64,000 nucleotides of DNA from Pseudomonas guineae. GTDB lineage: Bacteria > Pseudomonadota > Gammaproteobacteria > Pseudomonadales > Pseudomonadaceae. Below are positions 1 through 60,547 of this stretch, piece by piece. The stretch covers positions 1,674,001 through 1,738,000 of the forward strand of contig NZ_FOQL01000001.1 of NCBI RefSeq assembly GCF_900113745.1, written 5' to 3'. The notes below the pieces were generated by a model that worked only from the letters and a program-made list of their open reading frames with translations, searched no databases and was not told the origin of the DNA. Positions within the stretch are counted from its first letter, which is position 1; every line of letters starts with the position of its first letter. Both the position numbers and the translations under genes were made by a program.

Positions 1-34
1 TCGATTGATCGTTTTTTTGCCGTGCAACTGAGCC

Positions 35-116
35 CGTGGGATGGGTTAAACGTAGTGATACTCATACGGTGTAAGGCTATCGCCTGATGGGTATCGCAGG
101 CTCAACCCATCCCACG
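35..116. repeat. Inverted-repeat element, GGGATGGGTT-ended variant
   Basis: The ends CGTGGGATGGGTT (35-47) and AACCCATCCCACG (104-116) are perfect 13-base inverted repeats around about 56 bases. The element resembles the GTAGGGTGG(A/G)T-ended repeats elsewhere in the window and ends two bases before the cobJ stop codon, so it may act as a 3' hairpin of the cob transcript. Confidence 0.65.
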
Positions 117-117
117 T

Positions 118-1779
118 TTACAGCTGTGGGTAACTTCTCGGCGTGTACACCCATTCGCCTCCTTCGGCGCGCGGGAAGCGGCAGGTTTGGCTGGAGCCGA
201 TGATTACCAGGGTGCGCATATCGACCATTTCTGGCGTGAGTTCGCCGAGGGTGAGGATGCGCAGGGTTTCGCCGGGGCGGCCGATATCGCGGCCGAGCAC
301 CACCAGGGTTTCTGGCGTGCGTTGCTGACGGACGATGTCTAGGGCGCTGCCAAGCTGCCAGGGGCGGGCTTTGGAAATGGGGTTGTAGAAGGCCATCACC
401 AAGTCGGCGGCAGCGGCGTGCGCTAGGCGCTTTTCGATAATCGTCCAGGGTTTGAGGTTGTCGGACAGGGAGATCAGGCAGAAGTCATGGCCCAGCGGTG
501 CGCCGGCCTTGGCGGCGGTGGCCAGCGCAGCGGAAACGCCGGGGAAGACCTGCAAATCGACGCGCTGCCACTCGGCATCGGTCGACTCGTGCAAGGCTTC
601 CAGCACGGCGGCGGCCATGGCGAATACGCCGGGGTCGCCGGACGACACCACCACCACCCGCCGACCGCTGGCGGCCAACTCGAAGGCATGGCGTGCACGC
701 TGCATTTCTTCGCGGTTATCGGTGCAGTGGCGCACCTGCTCCGGGCGCAGCGGGCCGGCCATGTTGATATAGGTTTCGTAGCCGAGCAGGTCTTGCGCTT
801 CGTCCAGTGCCTGGCGCGCGGCAGGCACCATAAATTCGGCGGCACCGGGGCCAAGGCCGATTACCGTCAAGCGACCACGCGGGCGGCCGAGCTGGCTGGC
901 ATCGATGGCCGCAGCGGCCAGCAGCAGGCGCAGGTTGGCGTGCTGGCTGTGCAGCGGCGGCAGTTGGCTTACATCGTCAATAAAGCGCAGCGGCAGCTTG
1001 AGTTGCGCGGCGGCGGCGTGCAGTTCGGTGTTGGCCATCAACTCTGGTGCAGCCAATAGGCAGGCCAAGCTTTGCGCGGCCAGGCCACTGCTGCGTAGCG
1101 CGTGCTGTAATTCGCTGAGTAAGTCGGCGCTGACACTTTCGACCCACACGGCGACTTGTTGCGGGTGAATCAGCAGCTCATCGGCGTTAGCGGCGCGGCG
1201 GTGCGGGCTGATGTGGATAACTAGCGAGGCATGGTTATCCACAGGCAATTTGGCCTGGGCCAGCCAGGGTGCATCACCTTCGATACGCACGGCCTGGCCG
1301 CCAAGCAGATCGCTGACAAAGCCTTTGCCCTGCTCAAGATCGGCCAATACATAACCGGCCGGCGGCTCCAGCAGGCAGGTGCCGAAACGCAGTTCGCCGC
1401 TGGTGGTGATCGCCGCGCTGACGTCAAGGTGCGCGGCAACTTCGCGCGCCATACGGTTTACTCCACCCAGACCACCGAGCAGCGGCACCACGGCGCTGCC
1501 GTCTTCGGCCACCGCCAGCACCGGCGGTTCGCGGTCTTTCTCGCCCAGCACGGCGGCCAGGCTACGGATGACGATGCCGGCGGCGCACAGGGCGATGATC
1601 GGTGTACCGGCGCGGTACAACGCGCGCAGGGTGTCGCCGAAGTCTTCATAGGTGCGCTCAACGCCCTCGACCCGGCCACTCAGGCCGTGGATCTCGGCCT
1701 GGGGATACAGCGCCTGGATGCGCCGCGCGCAGGGCAGTGCAGAGGAACCGAGAATGATAATGGCGGGAGCGCTGGTCAT
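118..1779 (-). CDS. cobJ: CbiG-CobJ fusion: precorrin-3B C17-methyltransferase with N-terminal CbiG domain
   Basis: A 553-residue two-domain protein of corrin ring synthesis. Residues 1 to about 290 resemble CbiG, the protein that opens the delta-lactone in the anaerobic route. Residues about 300-545 are a SAM-dependent tetrapyrrole methylase: VIGLGPG near 307 and the later SSGDPGVFAM motif are the family's SAM-site signatures, and the domain matches CobJ, which methylates C17 and drives ring contraction. The fusion explains why it is about twice the length of a lone CobJ. It is the last gene of the leftward cobG-H-I-J set, separated from cobI by about 180 bases of stacked repeats. Cytoplasmic. 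The identity of the methylase domain is secure; whether the CbiG part is active beside an aerobic CobG is not visible from sequence. Confidence 0.93.
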   Translation of the reverse strand: MTSAPAIIILGSSALPCARRIQALYPQAEIHGLSGRVEGVERTYEDFGDTLRALYRAGTPIIALCAAGIVIRSLAAVLGEKDREPPVLAVAEDGSAVVPLLGGLGGVNRMAREVAAHLDVSAAITTSGELRFGTCLLEPPAGYVLADLEQGKGFVSDLLGGQAVRIEGDAPWLAQAKLPVDNHASLVIHISPHRRAANADELLIHPQQVAVWVESVSADLLSELQHALRSSGLAAQSLACLLAAPELMANTELHAAAAQLKLPLRFIDDVSQLPPLHSQHANLRLLLAAAAIDASQLGRPRGRLTVIGLGPGAAEFMVPAARQALDEAQDLLGYETYINMAGPLRPEQVRHCTDNREEMQRARHAFELAASGRRVVVVSSGDPGVFAMAAAVLEALHESTDAEWQRVDLQVFPGVSAALATAAKAGAPLGHDFCLISLSDNLKPWTIIEKRLAHAAAADLVMAFYNPISKARPWQLGSALDIVRQQRTPETLVVLGRDIGRPGETLRILTLGELTPEMVDMRTLVIIGSSQTCRFPRAEGGEWVYTPRSYPQL

Positions 1780-51707: not shown

Positions 51708-52002
51708 GACGCTCTAAAAAGACGTCCTAACCGGGTTTAGGAGAGCGAAGAAAAGACCTCGTGATTTTGGAAAAATCCCGAATTCCACTTGCCGAGTCTT
51801 CCGAACAGTCATAGACACTACTTGGTCAGGCAAATAGATTTATTTCTAGGCGTTATCGAGTGCTGGGTTGTGTTGTTTTTTAGGTGAAGTTGCTGCTCTC
51901 ATGTTGAGAGCAGCATGCCGCTCAGCTTGGTAGTTGTCGATATTAAACGACACCAGTTTTATCGAGGAAGTAAATATTTCTATGGTTTTTATAGCGCTAT
52001 TT

Positions 52003-52443
52003 TTAGAACCAGGGTTTGGAGGCATTTACATAAGTATTTTCAAACTCATCATCCGATTTTATTAAATATATGATGAATTCAACGAATGCAATTACACCAA
52101 TCACCATCGATGGAATGCCCAGTAGGATAAAGCCGAAGATGAAAGTCAACAGCATGATCACGCCTTGCTTATTATAACCAAGGAAGAATTTATGTGCACC
52201 AAAAGCGCCAAGAAAAAACGCCAAAATAGCAGCAGGAATTTTTTTCGAAGAACCTGAAGCAGCCTGGTCTTGATAGATATCTGCGGCTGCACCTTCGTTT
52301 ACCGAGAAGTCTACCTTGGCGCCGCTCTTTGGCAGTACGCTACCTTTCCACTGACTCATATCGAAGTTATAGCGATTACCATCGTCGGCACTGATGACGC
52401 CAGTACGATTATTGCTATTGAAATCCAGAATCTTGCCTTTCAT
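52003..52443 (-). CDS. TM2-domain protein with N-terminal cold-shock-like domain
   Basis: A 146-residue protein. Residues 1-60 (GKILDFNSNNRTGVISADDGNRYNFDMSQWKG) resemble a short OB/cold-shock-like domain; residues 72-128 are a TM2 domain, two helices with the GAFGAHKFFLGYNKQGVI loop. AAGGAA lies 7 bases before the ATG at 52443. Base composition is AT-richer than flanking genes. Last gene of a four-gene operon with the vWA-like, five-helix and OmpA-like genes. Function unknown. Confidence 0.82.
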   Translation of the reverse strand: MKGKILDFNSNNRTGVISADDGNRYNFDMSQWKGSVLPKSGAKVDFSVNEGAAADIYQDQAASGSSKKIPAAILAFFLGAFGAHKFFLGYNKQGVIMLLTFIFGFILLGIPSMVIGVIAFVEFIIYLIKSDDEFENTYVNASKPWF

Positions 52444-52482
52444 GGTGCATTCCTTGTTTTGGGAGTGGATGTGACGCACAGC

Positions 52483-53316
52483 TTATTTCAGGTCGATATT
52501 CAAACTGGGTGAACCAAAAGCTACTAGGTTGGCGTTAGAGCCTTCGAAGTAGCCTTTCCAAAAGCTATGTAGCAACTCCATGGTTTTACCAGAGCGATAG
52601 GCTTGCTTAACATCTTTGGTTACTAAGCCTGCTCCGGCGACATAGACCCTCGCACCCTGTAGGTCAGCAAACAGTTGCTTGTCGCTAACCCGTCTCAGCT
52701 CGCCCTGCGGTTGCAAATCGCGGATACGGTTGTTGGCGTAGAAACTGCCGAAATCACTGTTTTCCAACATGTCAGAGAGCAGCAGGATTACCCGTTCTTC
52801 GGCCGGTTGGCGCGCCAGGTCTTCGCCTATGTCGCGCAAGGAGTGGAAGATCTCACTGCGCGGAATATCTTCCGATGCTTCGCGCAGGCTGCTGACGAAG
52901 GCCTGGCCAAACTTCTTGCGAAAGAAGGCTTGCTGCTCTGCTACGCACTTATCGAAACTACGCAGTGATTGCATGCCGATGCTGTCGCGCACCTTGCCTT
53001 CGAGCGGCTGGTTCAGCTCTCCGGCGAAACGCAGTTGCATAAATTGGTTAGGTAGAAAGGCCGAAAAGCTGTACAGGCGAACTCTATCGCCAGGTACAAC
53101 AAAGCGATTGATCTGTCCCCATGCGGCTTTCTGGATACTGTCCGGCATTGGAATGGTTTGATCGACTATTACCGTCAGTTCGCGGCCTGAGCCTCGTTGG
53201 CGAAACTCTTTAACTTTGGCATAGCCATAGCAATCGGGAATGTCGTTGCGCTCGCCGCCTGCCTGCACGAGTGCAGGTAGGCAAAGGAGCAAGGCGGAAA
53301 GAGCCTTGAGTTTCAT
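52483..53316 (-). CDS. Exported vWA-like protein, unknown function
   Basis: A 277-residue protein with a signal peptide (residues 1-19, LPALVQAG). The mature part looks like a von Willebrand A fold: ELTVIVDQTIPM (strand with degenerate metal-site Asp-x-Thr), and later VILLLSDMLENSDFG with an Asp after a hydrophobic strand, then VYVAGAGL. The DxSxS motif is not complete, so metal binding is doubtful. Two cysteines (about 29 and 123) may form a disulfide. It begins directly at the stop of the upstream membrane gene (TAAATG). No family name recalled. Confidence 0.7.
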   Translation of the reverse strand: MKLKALSALLLCLPALVQAGGERNDIPDCYGYAKVKEFRQRGSGRELTVIVDQTIPMPDSIQKAAWGQINRFVVPGDRVRLYSFSAFLPNQFMQLRFAGELNQPLEGKVRDSIGMQSLRSFDKCVAEQQAFFRKKFGQAFVSSLREASEDIPRSEIFHSLRDIGEDLARQPAEERVILLLSDMLENSDFGSFYANNRIRDLQPQGELRRVSDKQLFADLQGARVYVAGAGLVTKDVKQAYRSGKTMELLHSFWKGYFEGSNANLVAFGSPSLNIDLK

Positions 53317-54921
53317 TTAGACCTCTTCAAAGTCTTTCAACAGTTGTTGTTCGGCCCTTAGCGCCAGTACGGCATCCAGGTCATAGCCTTTGGCCCGGCA
53401 GATGGTGCCCAGCTGCTCGTTGTTGTAGGCGGTCAGATCTTTACTGCGCAGCGCATTGTGGTCAGCCGCCTGGGTTGCTTCGACTGCTGGTGCGGGGCTC
53501 TCCGCCTGTATTTCAGGCACTGCTGGTGTGGGTTGGGCTATTGCTGCCGGGGTTGCAGTTGGCTGTGCCGGAGGGCTTATTGGCTGGACTTGGGCAGCGC
53601 TTGGCAGGTTCGGTTGTGCTTGTGATCGATGGGTACCAGCCTCTTCCTGCATGCGCAGTACATAGGCATTGAAGTCGCGGCCGTGAGCGCCTTTGAGGGC
53701 TGCTTGTACATTGCTGTCTGTGGTTGTGCGCTTGGATAGCTTCATTTGCAGCATGCGTAGCTTGTGGTCGGCATGGGCCGCGATTTTGCCGCGTTGGTTT
53801 TCCATCCAGCGCTCAAGCTCAACGGCGTTGTTGAATTTGTGGGTGTATTCCCAGGCCTTCTTCGATTCGACCCCGGCGAAGCCGAAGATCGACGCTAGCC
53901 AGACGCTGACTGCCTGGATGGCGACGTAGATGACCGAGAGCACCACAAAGGTGATCAGCGAGGCGCTGCGAATCGCATCCATTTTGTCAGTCAGGGTGCT
54001 GTCGCTGGCTTCCTGGTTTACTGCTGCGGAGTCCTCCGGCAGTTCAAAGGGGCTGGCGCTGCTTTCGTAGCTTTGCTCGGCAAACACGCTCGGGTTGCCA
54101 ACCATTTCGGTTTCGATGCTCTTGAGCTGATAGGCGCGTATACCGAATGCTGCACAGGCCATGATCATGACCACTAGGGCGCAGCCGACGATCCAGCCAT
54201 GCCGTGGGGTTACGGTTTGATTGGTAACGATGCGCGCCAGAATACGGTTGTAGTCCTTTCCGCCTTCGTCCTTCTCGGTTTCTTTGATACGTACACCAGG
54301 TTGCACTTGTTTCAGTGGAGTGACTTTATTCTCATCCTGATCGCCTTCCCACCAGTGGCGAGCCTTGTTAACCAGTGAGTTGTGATGGATTGCCCGGCCT
54401 GCAGCTTCAGCAAAGCCTGCGGAGATAATCGACAGGAGAAATGCGGCCATCCAGCCCAGATAGGCTTGGTCATTGGATGACAGGTTCTGGTTAATAAAAG
54501 GCACCAGTACATAGGCGAAACCTACGGCTTCAAAGAGAATCAGCAGAAAGATCAGCACCAGCACCCAGATCGGGCGCTCACGGCGGTCTCCTTCACCGAT
54601 AGTGTCTAGGTAGGACTCGCACTTGTTGTAGTAGTCGGAGCTTTTATCCCCAACGTCCTGGTAGTAGTCGTAGTAGTTGTTGCACAGCGAGGCTTCGCTA
54701 AGCAGCCACTTCTTGTGGTCGGTGCTGGTACTGCTACTGGCCAGACGCGCGACGGTGCCGATCACTGGGGTGCCGTGCCATACACGCATCAGAAAATAGC
54801 CGACTTTGTCCCAGTAGACCTTGATCAGAAGTGCCGAGAGCAGGGTGGTGATCACCGCACCTGTCACCAGTTTGTTGGCCAGGGCCAAAGCCATCAGCGC
54901 ATTGAAGCTGAAATCTTCCAT
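53317..54921 (-). CDS. Five-helix membrane protein with Pro/Ala-rich tail, unknown function
   Basis: A 534-residue inner-membrane protein. Predicted helices lie at about 18-38, 118-142, 155-176, 243-264 and 318-345. A soluble segment between helices 1 and 2 has Tyr-rich NNYYDYYQDVGDKSSDYYNK; after helix 5 comes a basic, helical segment, then a Pro/Ala/Gln-rich linker (about 440-490) and a short helical C-terminus (NNEQLGTICRAKGYDLDAVLALR). It lies 21 bases after the OmpA-like gene and runs directly into the vWA-like gene. Not recognised as any transporter or motor family. Confidence 0.72.
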   Translation of the reverse strand: MEDFSFNALMALALANKLVTGAVITTLLSALLIKVYWDKVGYFLMRVWHGTPVIGTVARLASSSTSTDHKKWLLSEASLCNNYYDYYQDVGDKSSDYYNKCESYLDTIGEGDRRERPIWVLVLIFLLILFEAVGFAYVLVPFINQNLSSNDQAYLGWMAAFLLSIISAGFAEAAGRAIHHNSLVNKARHWWEGDQDENKVTPLKQVQPGVRIKETEKDEGGKDYNRILARIVTNQTVTPRHGWIVGCALVVMIMACAAFGIRAYQLKSIETEMVGNPSVFAEQSYESSASPFELPEDSAAVNQEASDSTLTDKMDAIRSASLITFVVLSVIYVAIQAVSVWLASIFGFAGVESKKAWEYTHKFNNAVELERWMENQRGKIAAHADHKLRMLQMKLSKRTTTDSNVQAALKGAHGRDFNAYVLRMQEEAGTHRSQAQPNLPSAAQVQPISPPAQPTATPAAIAQPTPAVPEIQAESPAPAVEATQAADHNALRSKDLTAYNNEQLGTICRAKGYDLDAVLALRAEQQLLKDFEEV

Positions 54922-54942
54922 CTTGAGTTCCTTGTACTTGTA

Positions 54943-56463
54943 TTAGGTACGAACCGGAATGAACCGGGCGCTGTAGGCTTCGCCATTGTTTTTCGGATAG
55001 AAGAGCATGCCGTCTGTTGCTTGTGAGTTGCCTTTACTGAACACCACATCCAGGCAGGAAACTGGTTCTTGCGGGTTGCTTACGAATACGCGATAGAGCA
55101 CACGGTCTTCGCCTTCGTATGTGTTAGCGATGGCGCTGGCCTTGACCTGGGCTTTGCGATTGCCGGTATCGTAGTTCGGCACTACTTGTACGAAGGGCTG
55201 GCGATCTACTGTGGCGGCGTCGCGCAGTATGGATACGGGGGAAATCGTCACTAGGTGGCCATTGACTGTCTGCGCCCATACGCGGTTGTTGTAGCCTGGT
55301 AGGTAATCGGTGGTGGCATGGGTTTCCAGGGCTTTGCCGCTGGCCAGGTTGAACACCTCGCCACTTTGGCGCGGCTTATCGCTTTCGCAGCTGCTCATGG
55401 GGATGTCAGCCGCATTTGCCGTAGAAATCAGGGCGAAACCGCCACTTTTCGGCGTGATGGCCTGGCCTAGCGTCCAGTTGTTGACAATCGCAGGCTGGCC
55501 GCCAAAGTCGATCACCTTACCTTTGTGCGCGCGTGTTGCAACGCTGCCCGAGGGGCTTGTATTGCGGGTGCTTTGAGCAATTGCCGTATCCTTGCTCGTA
55601 GCCGGTTTGGTGGCGGCGTCTCTCGTTGAGGCCTTGATCGATAACGGCGCAGTTGCTTCAGTCGAGGTGCCGTGAACGAGATATTTGGGGTTGTTCTGTT
55701 CAGCATTGACCCGCTTTACCAGGGTTGTTCGGTCGTTGACTTCGACTATCTCGACGCGACGATTCTTACCGCGTTGCAGGCTGTCACTGTTGTCGGCGAT
55801 TGGCCTGGAAGCACCTGCCCCCTGAAAGAACATACGTTCACGATCAATGCCCTGTTCGGCCAGGATACTTGCTACAGCCTTAGCGCGGCGTTCAGACAGT
55901 TGCTGGTTGCCTTGCGCGCTGCCGGTGGCGTCGGTGTGGCCAACTACCAGAATCGCCGAGTTTTTTGGCTGACCGGGTAGGGGGGCAAAGGCACTCGCCA
56001 GCTTGCGTACTTGGCGTTGCCCATCGCTGCTGAGCGTGGCGCTGCCTACAGGAAACATGCCCTGATCTTCAATTTGCGCGACTATGCCAGCATCCTCAGG
56101 TGCCGCGCTGGTTGTGCTGCTTGAGGTTTGAAGAGTTTCGAGCTGTATCTTGAGGTTTTCTTCGCGCGCCAATTGCTCCAGCTTATTCAGGCGGTTTTTG
56201 TACATCATTGCCAAGCCGCAACCAGCGGCAGCGCCGATAACGGCGCCACCTATGATGGCGCCACTGTCACCTTTGGTTGCGGCCCCGACTGCAGCCCCAG
56301 CGACTGCACCGAACAAGCCGCCGGCCATGCAGTTGATGTTGGCGCTGTTGTTTTTGGCGAAGTTATCGATTGTTGCGCAACTGCTGGTGCCTAAGCTGAT
56401 GGCGATGGCTAGAGCCGTGATGCGTAATGCGGGCGAACACCGGGTATGCAAGGCGATGAACAA
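54943..56463 (-). CDS. OmpA-family protein with glycine zipper and extra C-terminal domain
   Basis: About 506 residues from a TTG start at 56463 that has AGGAG at 8 bases; the frame is open to an ATG at 56586, but that start lacks a ribosome site. Residues 1-30 are a signal (ALAIAISLGTSSCA, a poor lipobox), then a glycine-zipper segment (GGLFGAVAGAAVGAATKGDSGAIIGGAVIGAAAG) and a coiled linker. A complete OmpA/MotB peptidoglycan-binding domain follows (GHTDATGSAQGNQQLSERRA... GKNRRVEIVE). Unlike usual OmpA proteins, about 250 residues follow it, with cysteines and no known motif. First gene of the four-gene operon. Confidence 0.8.
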   Translation of the reverse strand: MFIALHTRCSPALRITALAIAISLGTSSCATIDNFAKNNSANINCMAGGLFGAVAGAAVGAATKGDSGAIIGGAVIGAAAGCGLAMMYKNRLNKLEQLAREENLKIQLETLQTSSSTTSAAPEDAGIVAQIEDQGMFPVGSATLSSDGQRQVRKLASAFAPLPGQPKNSAILVVGHTDATGSAQGNQQLSERRAKAVASILAEQGIDRERMFFQGAGASRPIADNSDSLQRGKNRRVEIVEVNDRTTLVKRVNAEQNNPKYLVHGTSTEATAPLSIKASTRDAATKPATSKDTAIAQSTRNTSPSGSVATRAHKGKVIDFGGQPAIVNNWTLGQAITPKSGGFALISTANAADIPMSSCESDKPRQSGEVFNLASGKALETHATTDYLPGYNNRVWAQTVNGHLVTISPVSILRDAATVDRQPFVQVVPNYDTGNRKAQVKASAIANTYEGEDRVLYRVFVSNPQEPVSCLDVVFSKGNSQATDGMLFYPKNNGEAYSARFIPVRT

Positions 56464-56802
56464 TAGAGACGCTCCTGAAGCTTGTGGGCACTTCAGGGCA
56501 GGCACATTGAGCGCAGGGGCAAAATGTTCATCCGTGAAGCCTTGGTCTTTCGTTCGCAACCTTGCGAACTTCGTTAATTTCATCACAGTAATGATGGCGA
56601 TTCAATGGCGCCAATAAGCTGTTGGATGCATTCCTAAGCCGCTCTGGCGCTTTTATTAACGACCGCAGGCTTATGACGTTATTCAGGGGTCGTGTTTGGC
56701 TGAATCGGTATGCAGCTGAAATTGCTTGGGTATGAGGGCTGATATTTGTGTAATGCAGTGGCCTTCGCTATTGTCGCGCGTTCTGTGAGTTGAGGATTGC
56801 CG

Positions 56803-58062
56803 ATGCTGCAGGCTAATAGTCGCCCAGCCAATGCCACCCTAATCCTATTGGCCTCGCTCTACTGTGCCCAGGGCCTACCCTCCGGCTTGTTGGCCCATTC
56901 GTTACCAGTGCTGCTGCGTCAGCACGGTGTTGATCTGGCGTTGATCGGCCTGCTCAAGTTGCTGGCGTTGCCGTGGCTGCTCAAGGTGCTCTGGGCGCCT
57001 TGGGTGGATCGCTTGGCATCGCCGCGGCTGGGCCATCACCGGGGTTGGATTCTGCCGTTGCAGATGACTGTTATCGCCATCGTCACGGGCTTGGCGCTGA
57101 TCAATCCCGAGCGCCTGTTCGACAGTCACTTCCTGCTGCTGATCGGCCTGTTACTGCTGGTCAATTTGGCCGCCTCGACCCAGGATATTGCCACCGATGG
57201 TCTGGCCGTGCGCCTATTGCCGGAGCGCTGGCGTGGGCTGGGTAACAGCCTGCAGGTCTGCGGTTACAAGGTCGGCATGCTAGTCAGTGGCAGTGGTCTG
57301 TTGTTGGCGATGGATACCTTGGGTTGGTACCTCAGTCTTGCTCTGGTGGCAGCGCTGCTGGTGCTCATGACGGTGCCGATTTGGCGCTTTGCCGAGCGGC
57401 GCGAACTGCCGTTCCTGCCGGAGCAGGCCGAGCCGGCCGGCCCCGGACTGCTGCTGCGGCACTACCGTGGCTTGCTGATGCAGCCCGGCATGCTCTTTTG
57501 GCTGGCGGTGCTGTTGAGCTTCAAGCTGGGTGATGCGCTGGGCTCGCCGATGATCAAGCCGATGCTGGTGGATCAGGGTTGGAGTAATACCGAGTTGGGG
57601 CAGTTAACCTTGATCAGTAGTCTGGTCGGGATCGCTGGAGCGTTTATCGGGGGGCTGCTGTATGCACGGATCGGTGCGCTGCGTGCACTGCTCGGGTTCG
57701 GTCTGTTGCAGGCTGTCGGGATTGCAGCCATGGCCCAGCTGGTGCATGCCGGTGGCAACAGTGCGCTGGTGTACTCAGTGGCGTTGTTTGAGCAGGCCGC
57801 CGATGGCATGTCCACGGTCGCTTTGTTTGCCGTCATGATGCGCCAATGCCGGCCCGAGCATGAGGGGGCGGACTTTACCCTGCAGGCCAGTGTGCAGCTG
57901 TTGCTGGCCGGCCTGGTGGGCGCCAGCAGTGGCTTGCTGGCTAAGTGGTTAGGTTACGAGGCGTTGTTTGTGGGGGCCGGCGTCCTAGGCCTGCTGGCGT
58001 TGCCGCTGGTACTGCTGTACTTCCGCCGGTCGCAGCTTGCGGCCTTGGTCCACGCTCAATAG
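56803..58062 (+). CDS. Major facilitator superfamily transporter
   Basis: A 419-residue inner-membrane protein with 12 predicted helices, in two halves. The first loop has LLKVLWAPWVDRLASPRLGHHRGW, close to the AmpG/PAT-type MFS proteins, and ASTQDIATDGLAVRLLPERWRGLGNSLQVCGYKVG follows, a motif seen in AmpG-like muropeptide and siderophore-exporting families. GAGG lies 7 bases before the ATG at 56803. The substrate is uncertain. It converges with zwf. Confidence 0.88.
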   Translation: MLQANSRPANATLILLASLYCAQGLPSGLLAHSLPVLLRQHGVDLALIGLLKLLALPWLLKVLWAPWVDRLASPRLGHHRGWILPLQMTVIAIVTGLALINPERLFDSHFLLLIGLLLLVNLAASTQDIATDGLAVRLLPERWRGLGNSLQVCGYKVGMLVSGSGLLLAMDTLGWYLSLALVAALLVLMTVPIWRFAERRELPFLPEQAEPAGPGLLLRHYRGLLMQPGMLFWLAVLLSFKLGDALGSPMIKPMLVDQGWSNTELGQLTLISSLVGIAGAFIGGLLYARIGALRALLGFGLLQAVGIAAMAQLVHAGGNSALVYSVALFEQAADGMSTVALFAVMMRQCRPEHEGADFTLQASVQLLLAGLVGASSGLLAKWLGYEALFVGAGVLGLLALPLVLLYFRRSQLAALVHAQ

Positions 58063-58082
58063 TCAGCACTGCAGTTGTTGGG

Positions 58083-59525
58083 CTATTCCATCCACTGCCG
58101 TTCATGGCGTTCCAGCAGGTTGCTGGCTTGCTCCGGACCGTCGCTGCCGGCCGGGTAAGGGCGCGGGCTTTGGTAGTGCTGGTGCCAGCCTTTGATGATC
58201 GGGTCGACCCAGTTCCAAGCCGCTTCGACCTCATCACGGCGCATAAACAGCGTCGAGTCACCCTCAATCACATCCAGCAGCAGGCGCTCGTAAGCATCCC
58301 AGCGGCGCTGCTTGTGAAAGGCATCGGCCAGGTTGAGGTCGAGCTCCACCGGTTGCAGGTGCATGCCCTTGCCGGGGCTCTTGCCCATCAGTTGCAGGCT
58401 GATGCGCTCTTCCGGCTGCAGGCGGATCAGCAGGCGGTTGGCCTCGCCGCCACCAAACAGCTGGTGCGGCACCGGCTTGAACTGGATGAGAATTTCCGAC
58501 GTCTTGTGCCCCAGGCGTTTGCCGGTGCGCAGGTAGAACGGCACGCCGGCCCAGCGCCAGTTATCGATCTCGGCCTGCACGGCGACAAAGGTCTCGGTGT
58601 CGCTGTCGTTATCGACGTTCTTTTCGAAGTAGTAGGCCGGCACTTCCTGGCCGCCGATCTTGCCGGCGGTGTACTGGCCGCGCACGGTTTTATCTTGCAC
58701 GTCGAGGCCGGTGATGGGTTTCAGCGCCTCGAGAATTTTCACCTTCTCGTTGCGCACGGACTCGGCATCGAAGCGCACGGGTGCCTCCATGGCCACCAGG
58801 CAGAGCAACTGCAACAGGTGGTTCTGGATCATGTCGCGCATGGCGCCGGCTTTTTCGTAATAGGCGCCGCGGTTTTCCACGCCGAGGGTTTCGCACACGC
58901 TGATCTGCACATGGTCGATATGCCCAGCGCGCCAGATCGGCTCGAACAGCGCGTTAGCGAAGCGCAGCGCCATCAGGTTTTGTACGGTTTCCTTGCCCAG
59001 GTAGTGATCAATGCGGAACACCCGCGACTCATCAAACACCGCGCCGATGGCAGCGTTGATTGCCTGCGCTGACTGCAGTGAGTGGCCGATAGGTTTTTCC
59101 AGCACGATGCGCGCCTTGGGCCCGGCCAGGCGGGCGATCTTCAGGTGCGAGGCAATGTCTTCGAACAGGTCGGGCGCGGTGGCCAGGTAATAAATGCGTA
59201 CGCGCTCATGGTCTTCGCCCAAGCGTTTGCCCAGGCGGCCAAAGTCTGCACTCTGGCTGGCGTCCATGGCGAAGTAGTCGAGGCGCGCAGCAAAGCTAGC
59301 CCAGGTTTCATTATCGAAGTCGTTACGCGCCACTTGAGCGCGGCAATGGCGCTCAGCCAGGGCTTGATAAGCGCTGCGGCTGTGGGCGCTGCGGGCCAGG
59401 GCAAGAATACGCGTATCGACGTGTAGACGACCGGCGCGATGCAGGTGATAGAGCGCTGGCAGTAGTTTATGCAGGGCCAGATCGCCGGTGCCGCCAAACA
59501 CCAGCATGTCGCAGGGAATGCTCAA
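58083..59525 (-). CDS. zwf: Glucose-6-phosphate 1-dehydrogenase
   Basis: Zwf oxidises glucose-6-phosphate to 6-phosphogluconolactone, feeding the Entner-Doudoroff and pentose phosphate routes. FGGTGDLALHKLLPALYHL is the NADP loop near the start, FRIDHYLGKETVQNLMALRF holds the catalytic histidine, and WAGVPFYLRTGKRL the substrate pocket. The frame extends to an ATG at 59570, but that codon abuts the HexR box and has no ribosome site. I prefer the TTG at 59525, preceded by GGAG at 7 bases, which gives 480 residues beginning MSIPCDMLVFGG, similar to other Pseudomonas Zwf N-termini. No pgl/edd genes follow here. Confidence 0.93.
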   Translation of the reverse strand: MSIPCDMLVFGGTGDLALHKLLPALYHLHRAGRLHVDTRILALARSAHSRSAYQALAERHCRAQVARNDFDNETWASFAARLDYFAMDASQSADFGRLGKRLGEDHERVRIYYLATAPDLFEDIASHLKIARLAGPKARIVLEKPIGHSLQSAQAINAAIGAVFDESRVFRIDHYLGKETVQNLMALRFANALFEPIWRAGHIDHVQISVCETLGVENRGAYYEKAGAMRDMIQNHLLQLLCLVAMEAPVRFDAESVRNEKVKILEALKPITGLDVQDKTVRGQYTAGKIGGQEVPAYYFEKNVDNDSDTETFVAVQAEIDNWRWAGVPFYLRTGKRLGHKTSEILIQFKPVPHQLFGGGEANRLLIRLQPEERISLQLMGKSPGKGMHLQPVELDLNLADAFHKQRRWDAYERLLLDVIEGDSTLFMRRDEVEAAWNWVDPIIKGWHQHYQSPRPYPAGSDGPEQASNLLERHERQWME

Positions 59526-59569
59526 GGTGGGAACTCCGACTCGGTTTAGCAGTGCGGCAGCGGCGGTCA

Positions 59570-59584
59570 TGTAGTATAACTACA
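59570..59584. promoter_or_regulatory. HexR operator
   Basis: TGTAGTATAACTACA fits the HexR consensus TGTARTWWWWYTACA exactly. It lies between zwf and hexR, so HexR can repress zwf and its own gene; KDPG releases HexR in other pseudomonads. Confidence 0.93.
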
Positions 59585-59680
59585 AGACCACTACAACCGT
59601 CGTATGCCGATCATAACCGAGTCAATACTCAGATGCGGCGTGCTTGATGGATTCGTTAGCCAAATGTCGAGCCTAAACCT

Positions 59681-60547
59681 GTGAACCTGTTGCAGCACAT
59701 TGCCCAATCGCGTCATCTCCTCCGCAAATCAGAACTTAAAGTCGCGGATCATGTTCTGCTCGATCCGGCCTCGGTCATGCACAGCTCCATGGCTGAGTTG
59801 GCGCATAACGTGGGGATCAGCGAGCCGACTATCGTGCGCTTCTGCCGGGCGATTGGCTGCACCGGGTTTCAGGATCTCAAGCTCAAGCTGGCGCAGAGCC
59901 TGGCGGCCGGTGCCAGTTTCGGTCAGTTTGCCATTCATGAAGACGACTCGGTCGCCGACTTCAGCCTGAAGATCTTCGACACCACCCTGCACACCCTGAT
60001 TGAGGTGCGCGAGAAGCTCGACACCCAGGCTCTGCAGCAAGCCATTGCCGCCATCGCCAACGCCCAGCGCGTCGAGTTTTACGGTTTTGGTGCGTCCGGT
60101 GCGGTGGCCGCGGATGCCCAGCACAAGTTCTTCCGTCTGCTGCTGACAGCCGCGGCTTATTCCGACCCGCATATGCAGGCGATGAGCGCAGTGACCTTGA
60201 AGCCGACTGACGTGGCCATCTGCATCTCCCAGTCCGGGCGTTCTAAGGATTTGCTGATTACCGCCAACCTAGTGCGTGAAACCGGTGCGACGCTGATTAC
60301 CCTGTGCCCGAGCCAGACGCCGCTTGCCGACTTAGCCACGGTCAACCTGGCCATCGACGTACAGGAAGACACCGAGATCTACACCCCGCTGACTTCGCGT
60401 ATCGCCCACCTGGTGGTGATCGACGTACTCGCCATGGGTGTGGCCATGGCCCGCGGACCGGGACTGGTCAACCACCTCAAGAGCGTTAAGCGCAGTCTGC
60501 GCAGCCTGCGTCTGTCGCCGAAGTCGCATAAGAGCAGCGAAGACTAA
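59681..60547 (+). CDS. hexR: HexR, RpiR-family regulator of central carbon metabolism
   Basis: A 288-residue repressor: N-terminal RpiR-type helix-turn-helix (residues about 1-77; SMAELAHNVGISEPTIVRFCRAIGCTGFQDLKLKLAQ) and a SIS sugar-phosphate domain (about 120-260; FYGFGASGAVAADAQHKFFRL, CISQSGRSKDLL). It binds the palindrome upstream of zwf and is relieved by 2-keto-3-deoxy-6-phosphogluconate. The GTG start gives the standard N-terminus. Divergent from zwf as in other pseudomonads. Confidence 0.95.
   Translation: MNLLQHIAQSRHLLRKSELKVADHVLLDPASVMHSSMAELAHNVGISEPTIVRFCRAIGCTGFQDLKLKLAQSLAAGASFGQFAIHEDDSVADFSLKIFDTTLHTLIEVREKLDTQALQQAIAAIANAQRVEFYGFGASGAVAADAQHKFFRLLLTAAAYSDPHMQAMSAVTLKPTDVAICISQSGRSKDLLITANLVRETGATLITLCPSQTPLADLATVNLAIDVQEDTEIYTPLTSRIAHLVVIDVLAMGVAMARGPGLVNHLKSVKRSLRSLRLSPKSHKSSED

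What the first reader, a model, noticed from the sequence alone, without database searches (positions are those of the whole stretch)
51708..56600. Four-gene OmpA / five-helix / vWA-like / TM2 operon, possible undescribed envelope system
Seen: four leftward genes spaced 21, 0 and 39 bases apart: an OmpA-domain protein with glycine zipper and about 250 extra C-terminal residues; a 534-residue membrane protein with a Pro-rich tail; an exported vWA-like protein; a TM2 protein with a cold-shock-like domain. The AT-richer DNA suggests transfer. Known: an OmpA domain binds peptidoglycan; Zorya and Mot systems pair OmpA-type proteins with membrane proteins. Inferred: a cell-envelope complex, perhaps defence or stress. 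I know no named system of this composition.
Basis: partly seen in the sequence, partly recalled or inferred. Interest (0 to 1): 0.75.

Follow-up and report, generated by a model that had tools for sequence, protein, structure and literature searches.

The report
Undescribed three-gene cell-envelope cassette in bacteria
Three neighbouring genes that travel together between Gram-negative bacteria appear to build an unnamed protein bridge across the cell wall, from outer membrane to inner membrane; what the bridge does has not been shown, so it is a well-defined new target for experiments.

Summary
The four genes are real, but the conserved unit is three: an OmpA-domain lipoprotein with an unassigned C-terminal region, a five-helix inner-membrane protein of no known family (here MEM), and a secreted protein with a von Willebrand A fold. 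Genes for all three lie in the same order in 78 of 79 loci found with the vWA protein, and MEM and vWA searches return the same 20 plasmid records. Hosts span gamma-, beta- and alphaproteobacteria and one Campylobacterota plasmid; among relatives it is sparse (5 of 115 genomes, own included). The TM2 gene is an accessory. MEM and vWA match no family convincingly, and nine term searches found no paper on the operon. Further findings: invariant glutamate inside MEM helix 2, outside-in topology, a tail that differs between lineages, and an RsmA/CsrA-type GGA site in 28 of 42 Pseudomonas leaders. The OmpA gene probably starts at TTG 56463, not GTG 56586. Best reading: a trans-envelope tether that relays envelope state to the cytoplasm; function is inferred, not shown. 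Defence is not excluded, with only weak hints.

The parts
54943..56463 (-). Gene 1: OmpA-family lipoprotein, 506 aa from TTG 56463: signal with invariant lipobox Cys, glycine zipper, peptidoglycan-binding OmpA domain, then an unassigned C-terminal region with two invariant Cys
   Evidence: PF00691 in 52 of 52 members; C28, C358, C469 invariant in A6; PDB sequence matches (YiaD, YfiB and others) lie over the OmpA part. Start codon inferred
53317..54921 (-). Gene 2 (MEM): five-helix inner-membrane protein, inferred N-terminus out and C-terminus in; invariant E131 in TM2, R262 in TM4, Q336 in TM5; Pro/Ala-rich linker and small terminal module
   Evidence: pLDDT 81.5, pTM 0.64, no PDB or viral Foldseek match at E<=0.001, no family
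52483..53316 (-). Gene 3: secreted protein with vWA fold; signal peptide by eye, invariant D52-x-T54 and S181-D182 (reduced MIDAS-like), invariant C29 and C124
   Evidence: pLDDT 87.2, pTM 0.87; Foldseek best E 1.3e-5; the 50 VIA-align rows shown have Z 10.3-11.8, mostly vWA/I-domain-type chains
52003..52443 (-). Accessory gene: TM2-domain membrane protein with an N-terminal cold-shock-like stretch; not part of the conserved unit
   Evidence: directly after vWA only in the window and L013; of 7 of 115 relatives with a homologue only the window's own genome also has MEM
56577..56605 (-). Promoter-like element: TTGAAT, 17 bases, TGAAAT
   Evidence: Invariant columns in 17 aligned Pseudomonas leaders (coordinates read); the generic scan does not list it
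56527..56538 (-). TTCACGGATGAA: RsmA/CsrA-type GGA site (CANGGANG) in the 5' leader
   Evidence: consensus quoted in PMC6692469 (passages)
56472..56497 (-). Possible hairpin pairing CCTGAAGT with GCTTCAGG over the Shine-Dalgarno sequence
   Evidence: helix p 0.020 in the window; 8 of 31 leaders individually p<0.05, so suggestive only

Best explanation
A horizontally spread three-gene module encodes a trans-envelope complex. Gene 1 is an outer-membrane lipoprotein that grips peptidoglycan; gene 3 is a soluble periplasmic vWA protein that bridges, perhaps in a metal-dependent way; gene 2 sits in the inner membrane. Proposed working (inferred): a change in the distance or integrity of outer membrane and peptidoglycan, or binding of a ligand, moves the vWA protein on the periplasmic loop of MEM (residues about 265-317); MEM carries the change through the buried E131/R262/Q336 set to its long cytoplasmic helices and a tail module that recruits a cytoplasmic partner differing between lineages. 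In Pseudomonas production is probably kept low by a non-ATG start and by RsmA/CsrA-type binding to the leader. Shown: the unit and its synteny, the conserved residues and leader motif; predicted: vWA fold and topology. Inferred: complex formation, sensing and relay, Gac/Rsm control.
For: Synteny: 78 of 79 loci (in L020, L040 and L069 one gene is split into two ORFs and in L067 it is cut by the contig end); 84 of 84 loci (these 78 and 6 from the plasmid collection) same strand and order, MEM-vWA gap within -120..30 in 82, -4 in 29 and 0 in 18 by first start codon. Reciprocal searches: the same 20 plasmid records; in 398 genomes of the phylum MEM in 10 and vWA in 11, 9 shared, the unshared weak or partial. 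Of 11 regions fetched around MEM hits 10 hold all three genes, among them the distant G443, G363, G329, G708, G779; the marginal hit G201 has no vWA. Lipobox Cys, OmpA domain and C-terminal Cys pair kept in 52. vWA fold. Charges: K+R 15.7, 16.5 and 15.5% in the inferred cytoplasmic parts, 5.4% in the inferred periplasmic loop; E131, R262, Q336 each 52 of 52. Tails: double zinc ribbon in L008, HTH_17 in L084, other tails.
Against: No complex was modelled or measured; no phenotype is known. The C-terminal region of gene 1 was not folded. The vWA metal site is reduced (third MIDAS position Pro in the window, Ser in L009), so metal binding is a guess. In G443 the vWA gene lies about 1 kb from MEM. 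A buried glutamate is also expected of an ion-driven machine. The GGA site is absent from 14 of 42 Pseudomonas leaders and from all 39 others scored, so this control is not a property of the system as a whole.
Confidence: 0.45

Rival explanations
1. Anti-phage defence: an envelope sensor of phage attack (as Zorya is) whose MEM protein is the effector, for example by depolarising the inner membrane.
For: Patchy presence (5 of 115 genomes incl. own), plasmid copies (20 records), GC below the window mean. PycTM, a membrane-effector model, matches 7 of 52 MEM members, best E 4.7e-5; in the window protein E 0.0063 over TM5 and the next helix. PADLOC ZorB models match gene 1, best E 5.5e-14.
Against: The ZorB match covers the OmpA region, which also matches many other OmpA proteins. 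vWA matches no PADLOC model below E 0.018 in any of 54 members. Recurrent neighbours read as regulators, chemoreceptors, ABC transporters and metabolic genes (my reading, not every neighbour annotated). Only one ZorA hit in 52, E 0.0012.
Confidence: 0.2
2. An ion-driven force transducer, like the TolQ plus tethered-vWA pairs described in PMC12204202: ion flow at E131 moves the vWA protein, which pulls on the peptidoglycan-bound lipoprotein.
For: Invariant glutamate within TM2 and invariant Gln in TM5; a vWA partner and an OmpA-domain partner as in motor systems; precedent read in passages of PMC12204202.
Against: The vWA protein here shows only a signal-like N-terminus, no pore helix with an Asp (sequence and model); MEM has one weak ZorA hit in 52 members, no motor family among the 25 Pfam families shown, and no Foldseek match at E<=0.001.
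Confidence: 0.15
3. A static structural brace or an assembly/secretion device for a surface vWA protein (adhesion or gliding-like), with no signalling.
For: vWA proteins are often adhesins (recalled); weak GltJ gliding-model hits in 5 of 52 MEM members, best E 0.0027; many host names are of plant-, soil- or water-associated genera (names, habitats recalled).
Against: Strongly conserved buried polar residues and lineage-specific cytoplasmic tails are more than a brace needs; no export machinery in the unit.
Confidence: 0.15
4. A reduced form of the FtsZl1/vWA/OmpA membrane-remodelling operons of Makarova and Koonin 2010.
For: That system also joins vWA and OmpA-domain proteins with uncharacterised membrane proteins (PMC2875224, abstract and passages); its supplementary list of associated families was not seen.
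Against: Tubulin_2 (PF13809) absent from 16 of 16 cassette genomes tested; around 2 Tubulin_2 genes examined no MEM or vWA homologue, only an OmpA domain in one.
Confidence: 0.03

Closest known systems
YiaD-type glycine-zipper / OmpA lipoproteins
   Same: Gene 1 has lipobox, glycine zipper and OmpA domain (NCBIfam YiaD model 133.3 bits; YiaD domain is the best PDB sequence hit, E 8.2e-26)
   Different: Below the NCBIfam cut-off (175 bits); carries an extra conserved C-terminal region and lies in a fixed operon
Tethered vWA force transducers with TolQ-like motors (PMC12204202, passages seen)
   Same: vWA domain in the periplasm paired with an inner-membrane protein and a buried acidic residue
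   Different: There the vWA is tethered by its own helix and the partner is TolQ; here vWA looks soluble and secreted, and MEM has five helices and no Foldseek match at E<=0.001
FtsZl1 / vWA / OmpA operons (PMC2875224, abstract and passages seen)
   Same: Envelope-associated operons with vWA and OmpA-domain proteins
   Different: No Tubulin_2 gene in 16 cassette genomes; MEM and this vWA not found around the two Tubulin_2 genes examined
Zorya (ZorAB) anti-phage systems (PMC11890865: search listing and start of abstract only)
   Same: OmpA-type peptidoglycan-binding domain next to an inner-membrane protein
   Different: Gene 1 has a lipobox; MEM is not MotA-like by the models searched; nothing resembling ZorC/ZorD is in the conserved unit (Zorya composition recalled)
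Tol-Pal (recalled)
   Same: Outer-membrane OmpA-domain lipoprotein linked to an inner-membrane complex through a periplasmic protein
   Different: No match of MEM or vWA to Tol proteins in the libraries searched; patchy rather than near-universal

Membership tests
vWA fold superfamily | Rossmann-like vWA/I-domain fold | tested here: met
   Predicted model pLDDT 87.2; Foldseek best E 1.3e-5 (4jdu); VIA-align Z 11.8, rmsd 3.1 over 157 residues (8s05_B); rows shown are mostly vWA-type folds
vWA fold superfamily | Intact MIDAS motif DxSxS | tested here: not met
   D52-Q-T54-I-P56 in the window; D52, T54, S181, D182 invariant in 54; third position Ser in L009. A reduced MIDAS does not exclude the fold
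OmpA-type peptidoglycan-binding lipoproteins | PF00691 domain over its curated cut-off and a lipobox Cys | tested here: met
   PF00691 77.1 bits against 27.2; matched by 52 of 52 members; C28 invariant. Lipidation itself not tested
YiaD family (NF053611) | Score over the curated cut-off of 175 bits | tested here: not met
   133.3 bits
Zorya | ZorA: MotA/ExbB/TolQ-type inner-membrane protein | tested here: not met
   The window MEM matches no ZorA model at E<=1; 1 of 52 members at E 0.0012
Zorya | ZorB: membrane-anchored OmpA-domain stator | tested here: inconclusive
   ZorB models match gene 1, best E 5.5e-14, over the OmpA region; gene 1 has a lipobox Cys
FtsZl1/vWA/OmpA operons | Tubulin_2-type FtsZl1 gene with the operon | tested here: not met
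   0 of 16 cassette genomes
TolQ/ExbB/MotA motor proteins | MotA_ExbB fold | tested here: inconclusive
   No Foldseek match at E<=0.001 and VIA rows Z<=7.7; absence from such a list excludes nothing
RsmA/CsrA-regulated leaders | (A/U)CANGGANG(U/A) in the 5' leader | tested here: met
   Window and 28 of 42 Pseudomonas leaders (L075 moved to Pseudomonas); shuffled mean 0.33 of 41, maximum 4; leaders are related, so not independent
RsmA/CsrA-regulated leaders | GGA in the loop of a local hairpin | tested here: inconclusive
   Local hairpin in the fold of L015, not in the window's
RsmA/CsrA-regulated leaders | RsmA/CsrA binds and represses | not testable with these tools
   Needs gel shift or reporter

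The most novel reading that the evidence does not exclude
A new kind of modular trans-envelope signalling machine: a constant outer part (PG-bound lipoprotein, soluble vWA bridge, five-helix membrane core with a buried acid) joined to an exchangeable cytoplasmic tail (zinc ribbon, HTH or other small modules), so that one envelope sensor is rewired to different cytoplasmic partners, under Rsm-type control in Pseudomonas.
Probability: 0.3. Interest if true: 0.85.

Novelty: categorically new. Interest (0 to 1): 0.62.

Why it matters
Two of three core proteins match no family convincingly in Pfam, NCBIfam, PHROGs or PADLOC as searched here, yet they occur together in 78 of 79 loci and in two phyla. 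If the complex is real it adds a spanning system next to Tol-Pal, Ton and Zorya-like machines, and gives a clean three-gene target for asking what soluble periplasmic vWA proteins do. The conserved buried glutamate, the differing tails and the leader site give specific mutations to test.

Tried and rejected
TM2 as a fourth member: rejected. FtsZl1 link: rejected, though the paper's supplementary family list was not seen. Rfam: no leader family (one chance-level microRNA match elsewhere, E 0.35). Generic promoter scan: does not list the conserved element, so the promoter claim rests on conservation only. Shine-Dalgarno hairpin: only 8 of 31 leaders individually below p 0.05, and 11 of the 42 Pseudomonas leaders gave no Shine-Dalgarno call and were left out; kept as suggestive. 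Local GGA hairpin: in the window's fold the site does not form a local hairpin. Empty insertion site: in the closest relative G014 homology to the window stops at 56765 and the GGDEF/EAL gene was not found in the 19 kb fetched, so the site was not resolved. Fold of MEM: no Foldseek match at E<=0.001 in PDB or viral models; VIA rows are receptor and ABC-transporter helices up to Z 7.7, not meaningful. MEM and vWA by sequence in PDB: vWA none, MEM best E 0.47. E. coli genomes: no DNA match to the Enterobacter copy. Phages: none for MEM and vWA; viral contigs scanned for vWA only: none. Papers: nine term searches of the PMC library, seven aimed at the operon, one at the RsmA motif, one at six tags or accessions of relatives (0 papers); no paper on this operon was found, but most subscription journals and preprints are not held. 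Whether a defence island surrounds the cassette was judged only by reading recurrent neighbours, where one of the top clusters is an antisense artefact of the core.

Rows dropped: A4-A6 start from 56 of the 79 loci (23 dropped as 92% or more alike in vWA), without the loci L001-L011; then L041, L046, L055, L069, L088 were left out of A4, L041, L055, L069 out of A5, and L041, L055, L067, L069, L088 out of A6; four non-Pseudomonas loci without a recognised lipobox (L076, L079, L081, L082) were not scored; the 17 leaders were chosen after the GGA site had been seen in them, so invariance of the GGA columns is partly by choice; that of the promoter columns is not. In one search the L004 protein was cut at the match end.
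Full report
What is there. The window holds four leftward genes with gaps of 21, 0 and 39 bases. Pfam gives OmpA (PF00691, E 1.4e-21) for the first and TM2 (PF05154, E 6.8e-13) for the fourth; the 534-residue membrane protein (MEM) and the 277-residue secreted protein match no Pfam, NCBIfam, PHROG or PADLOC family convincingly (member-wise scans of MEM and of vWA). The genome is 4.15 Mb in 10 contigs; the nearest relatives of the vWA protein are from Pseudomonas, so I take the window to be Pseudomonas (inference).

The unit is three genes. A scan of genome contigs with the vWA alignment confirmed 140 stretches and kept 79 loci. Of these 79, 78 hold OmpA, MEM and vWA genes side by side in the same order; in L020, L040 and L069 one gene is split into two ORFs, and in L067 the first is cut by the contig end. 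The exception, L088, is a metagenome bin in which an ORF runs from an OmpA-like N-terminal part into a MEM-like tail. With six loci from the plasmid collection, 84 of 84 have the same strand and order; the MEM-vWA gap is within -120..30 in 82, -4 in 29 and 0 in 18, by first start codon. Searching plasmids separately with MEM and with vWA returned the same 20 records of 72,556; six were opened and hold all three genes. One, a 4.9-Mb Aeromonas 'plasmid', is more likely a chromosome (inference from size). In 398 genomes of the phylum MEM was found in 10 and vWA in 11, 9 shared; the unshared G554, G542 and G596 are weak or partial. In a class sample 5 of 369 had a MEM match, own genome and the marginal G201 included. 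Of 11 regions fetched around MEM hits 10 hold all three genes; G201 lacks vWA, and in G443 vWA lies about 1 kb from MEM.

The fourth gene is not part. Directly downstream of vWA the TM2 protein was seen in the window and L013 only; a homologue lies 8.6 kb away in L034. Among relatives it is found in 7 of 115 genomes, of which only the window's own has MEM. Elsewhere the next gene is something else: a LemA-family protein in three betaproteobacterial loci (Pfam on one of them), a NYN-domain protein in the Aliarcobacter plasmid, a mechanosensitive-channel-like protein in several Pseudomonas (my reading of one sequence; not run against Pfam).

Spread. Hosts include Pseudomonas, Stutzerimonas, Aeromonas, Pantoea, Erwinia, Pectobacterium, Lonsdalea, Enterobacter, Halomonadaceae, Frateuria and several betaproteobacteria, plus plasmids of Acidiphilium and Aliarcobacter. 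In the midpoint-rooted vWA tree Aeromonas lies inside a Pseudomonas-dominated group (100/99), and Pseudomonas falls into several groups. GC of the four genes is below the mean of 35 other window ORFs, but OmpA and MEM lie within their range. Among relatives 5 of 115 genomes have MEM, own included. No phage record matched MEM or vWA and no viral contig vWA. This fits an accessory module moved horizontally.

Gene 1. Lipobox Cys invariant in 52 members, a glycine zipper (34 of 52 match PF13488 at E<=0.05), an OmpA domain in 52 of 52, and a C-terminal region with invariant C358, D361, C469, D471. PDB sequence relatives cover the OmpA part. Outer-membrane placement is inferred from lipobox and family.

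Gene 2. The AlphaFold model (pLDDT 81.5, pTM 0.64, 52 sequences) shows long helices, five of them hydrophobic. Charges fit N-terminus out and C-terminus in: K+R 15.7%, 16.5% and 15.5% in 37-117, 175-241 and 343-434, 5.4% in 265-317. E131 (TM2), R262 (TM4) and Q336 (TM5) are invariant in 52 of 52. No solved or viral structure matches at E<=0.001. After a linker, often Pro/Ala-rich, the tail ends in modules that differ between lineages: double zinc ribbon in L008, HTH_17 in L084, Rho_N in two members, best E 0.0019.

Gene 3. The model (pLDDT 87.2, pTM 0.87) has a vWA fold: Foldseek best E 1.3e-5, VIA-align Z up to 11.8. D52, T54, S181, D182 and the pair C29/C124 are invariant in 54; the classical DxSxS is not kept. 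A signal peptide is visible in the sequence (recalled rules, no predictor run).

Leader. TTCANGGANGAA occurs in 15 of 88 leaders against 2 other hits in 2.96 Mb on both strands of the same loci. The RsmA/CsrA consensus (A/U)CANGGANG(U/A), quoted in PMC6692469 (passages), is met in 27 of 41 Pseudomonas leaders, shuffled mean 0.33, maximum 4; L075, counted among others there, is Pseudomonas too, so 28 of 42, and 0 of the remaining 39 scored. The leaders are related, so the shuffles overstate significance. All 14 misses lie in one 20-row branch of the tree. In an alignment of 17 Pseudomonas leaders that carry the site (chosen after seeing it) the invariant columns fall in the GGA site and in a TTGAA...TGTGATGAAAT-like promoter element. 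By a heuristic start/Shine-Dalgarno choice 26 of 31 leaders start with TTG or GTG. This points to post-transcriptional control of the Gac/Rsm type in part of Pseudomonas (inference).

How it may work. Lipoprotein, periplasmic bridge and inner-membrane core make a tether across the envelope; buried polar residues and differing tails suggest that it passes information or force inward rather than merely bracing. This is a proposal. Defence is open: the PycTM-like weak similarity of MEM (7 of 52) is the main hint, and recurrent neighbours do not read like defence islands.

Known systems. It shares parts, not membership, with Zorya, the vWA force transducers of PMC12204202 (passages) and the FtsZl1/vWA/OmpA operons of PMC2875224 (abstract and passages); Tubulin_2 is absent from 16 of 16 cassette genomes. 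Nine term searches gave no paper on this operon (listed under tried and rejected).

Verdict. Observation confirmed with two corrections. A real, conserved three-gene envelope module that I found unnamed; its composition appears new, its function is open.

Noticed in passing
window 56472-56605 (-) and leaders of 28 of 42 Pseudomonas cassettes: Conserved promoter-like element and RsmA/CsrA-type GGA site upstream of the OmpA gene, with a non-ATG start; possible masking hairpin at the ribosome site.
   Followed up: partly
L084 7317-8813; L008 7947-9551; A4 members: Cytoplasmic tail of the membrane protein ends in lineage-specific small modules (HTH_17, double zinc ribbon, other tails).
   Followed up: partly
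L076 9842-10669, L081, L088: LemA-type gene 26, 292 and 67 bases downstream of vWA in three betaproteobacterial-type loci (Pfam run on L076 only).
   Followed up: partly
L008 10692-11474: NYN-domain protein with an OST-HTH domain next to the cassette on an Aliarcobacter plasmid.
   Followed up: no
L088 8459-9004: OmpA-like N-terminal part running into the membrane protein's tail: internal deletion or assembly error in a metagenome bin.
   Followed up: no
window 56765: Homology with the closest relative (G014) ends just outside the MFS / glucose-6-phosphate dehydrogenase / RpiR-type regulator block (56797-60547), which suggests a variable site there.
   Followed up: partly
NZ_AP026896.1: Plasmid record of 4.9 Mb from Aeromonas caviae with 18 annotated features; probably a chromosome labelled as plasmid.
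   Followed up: no
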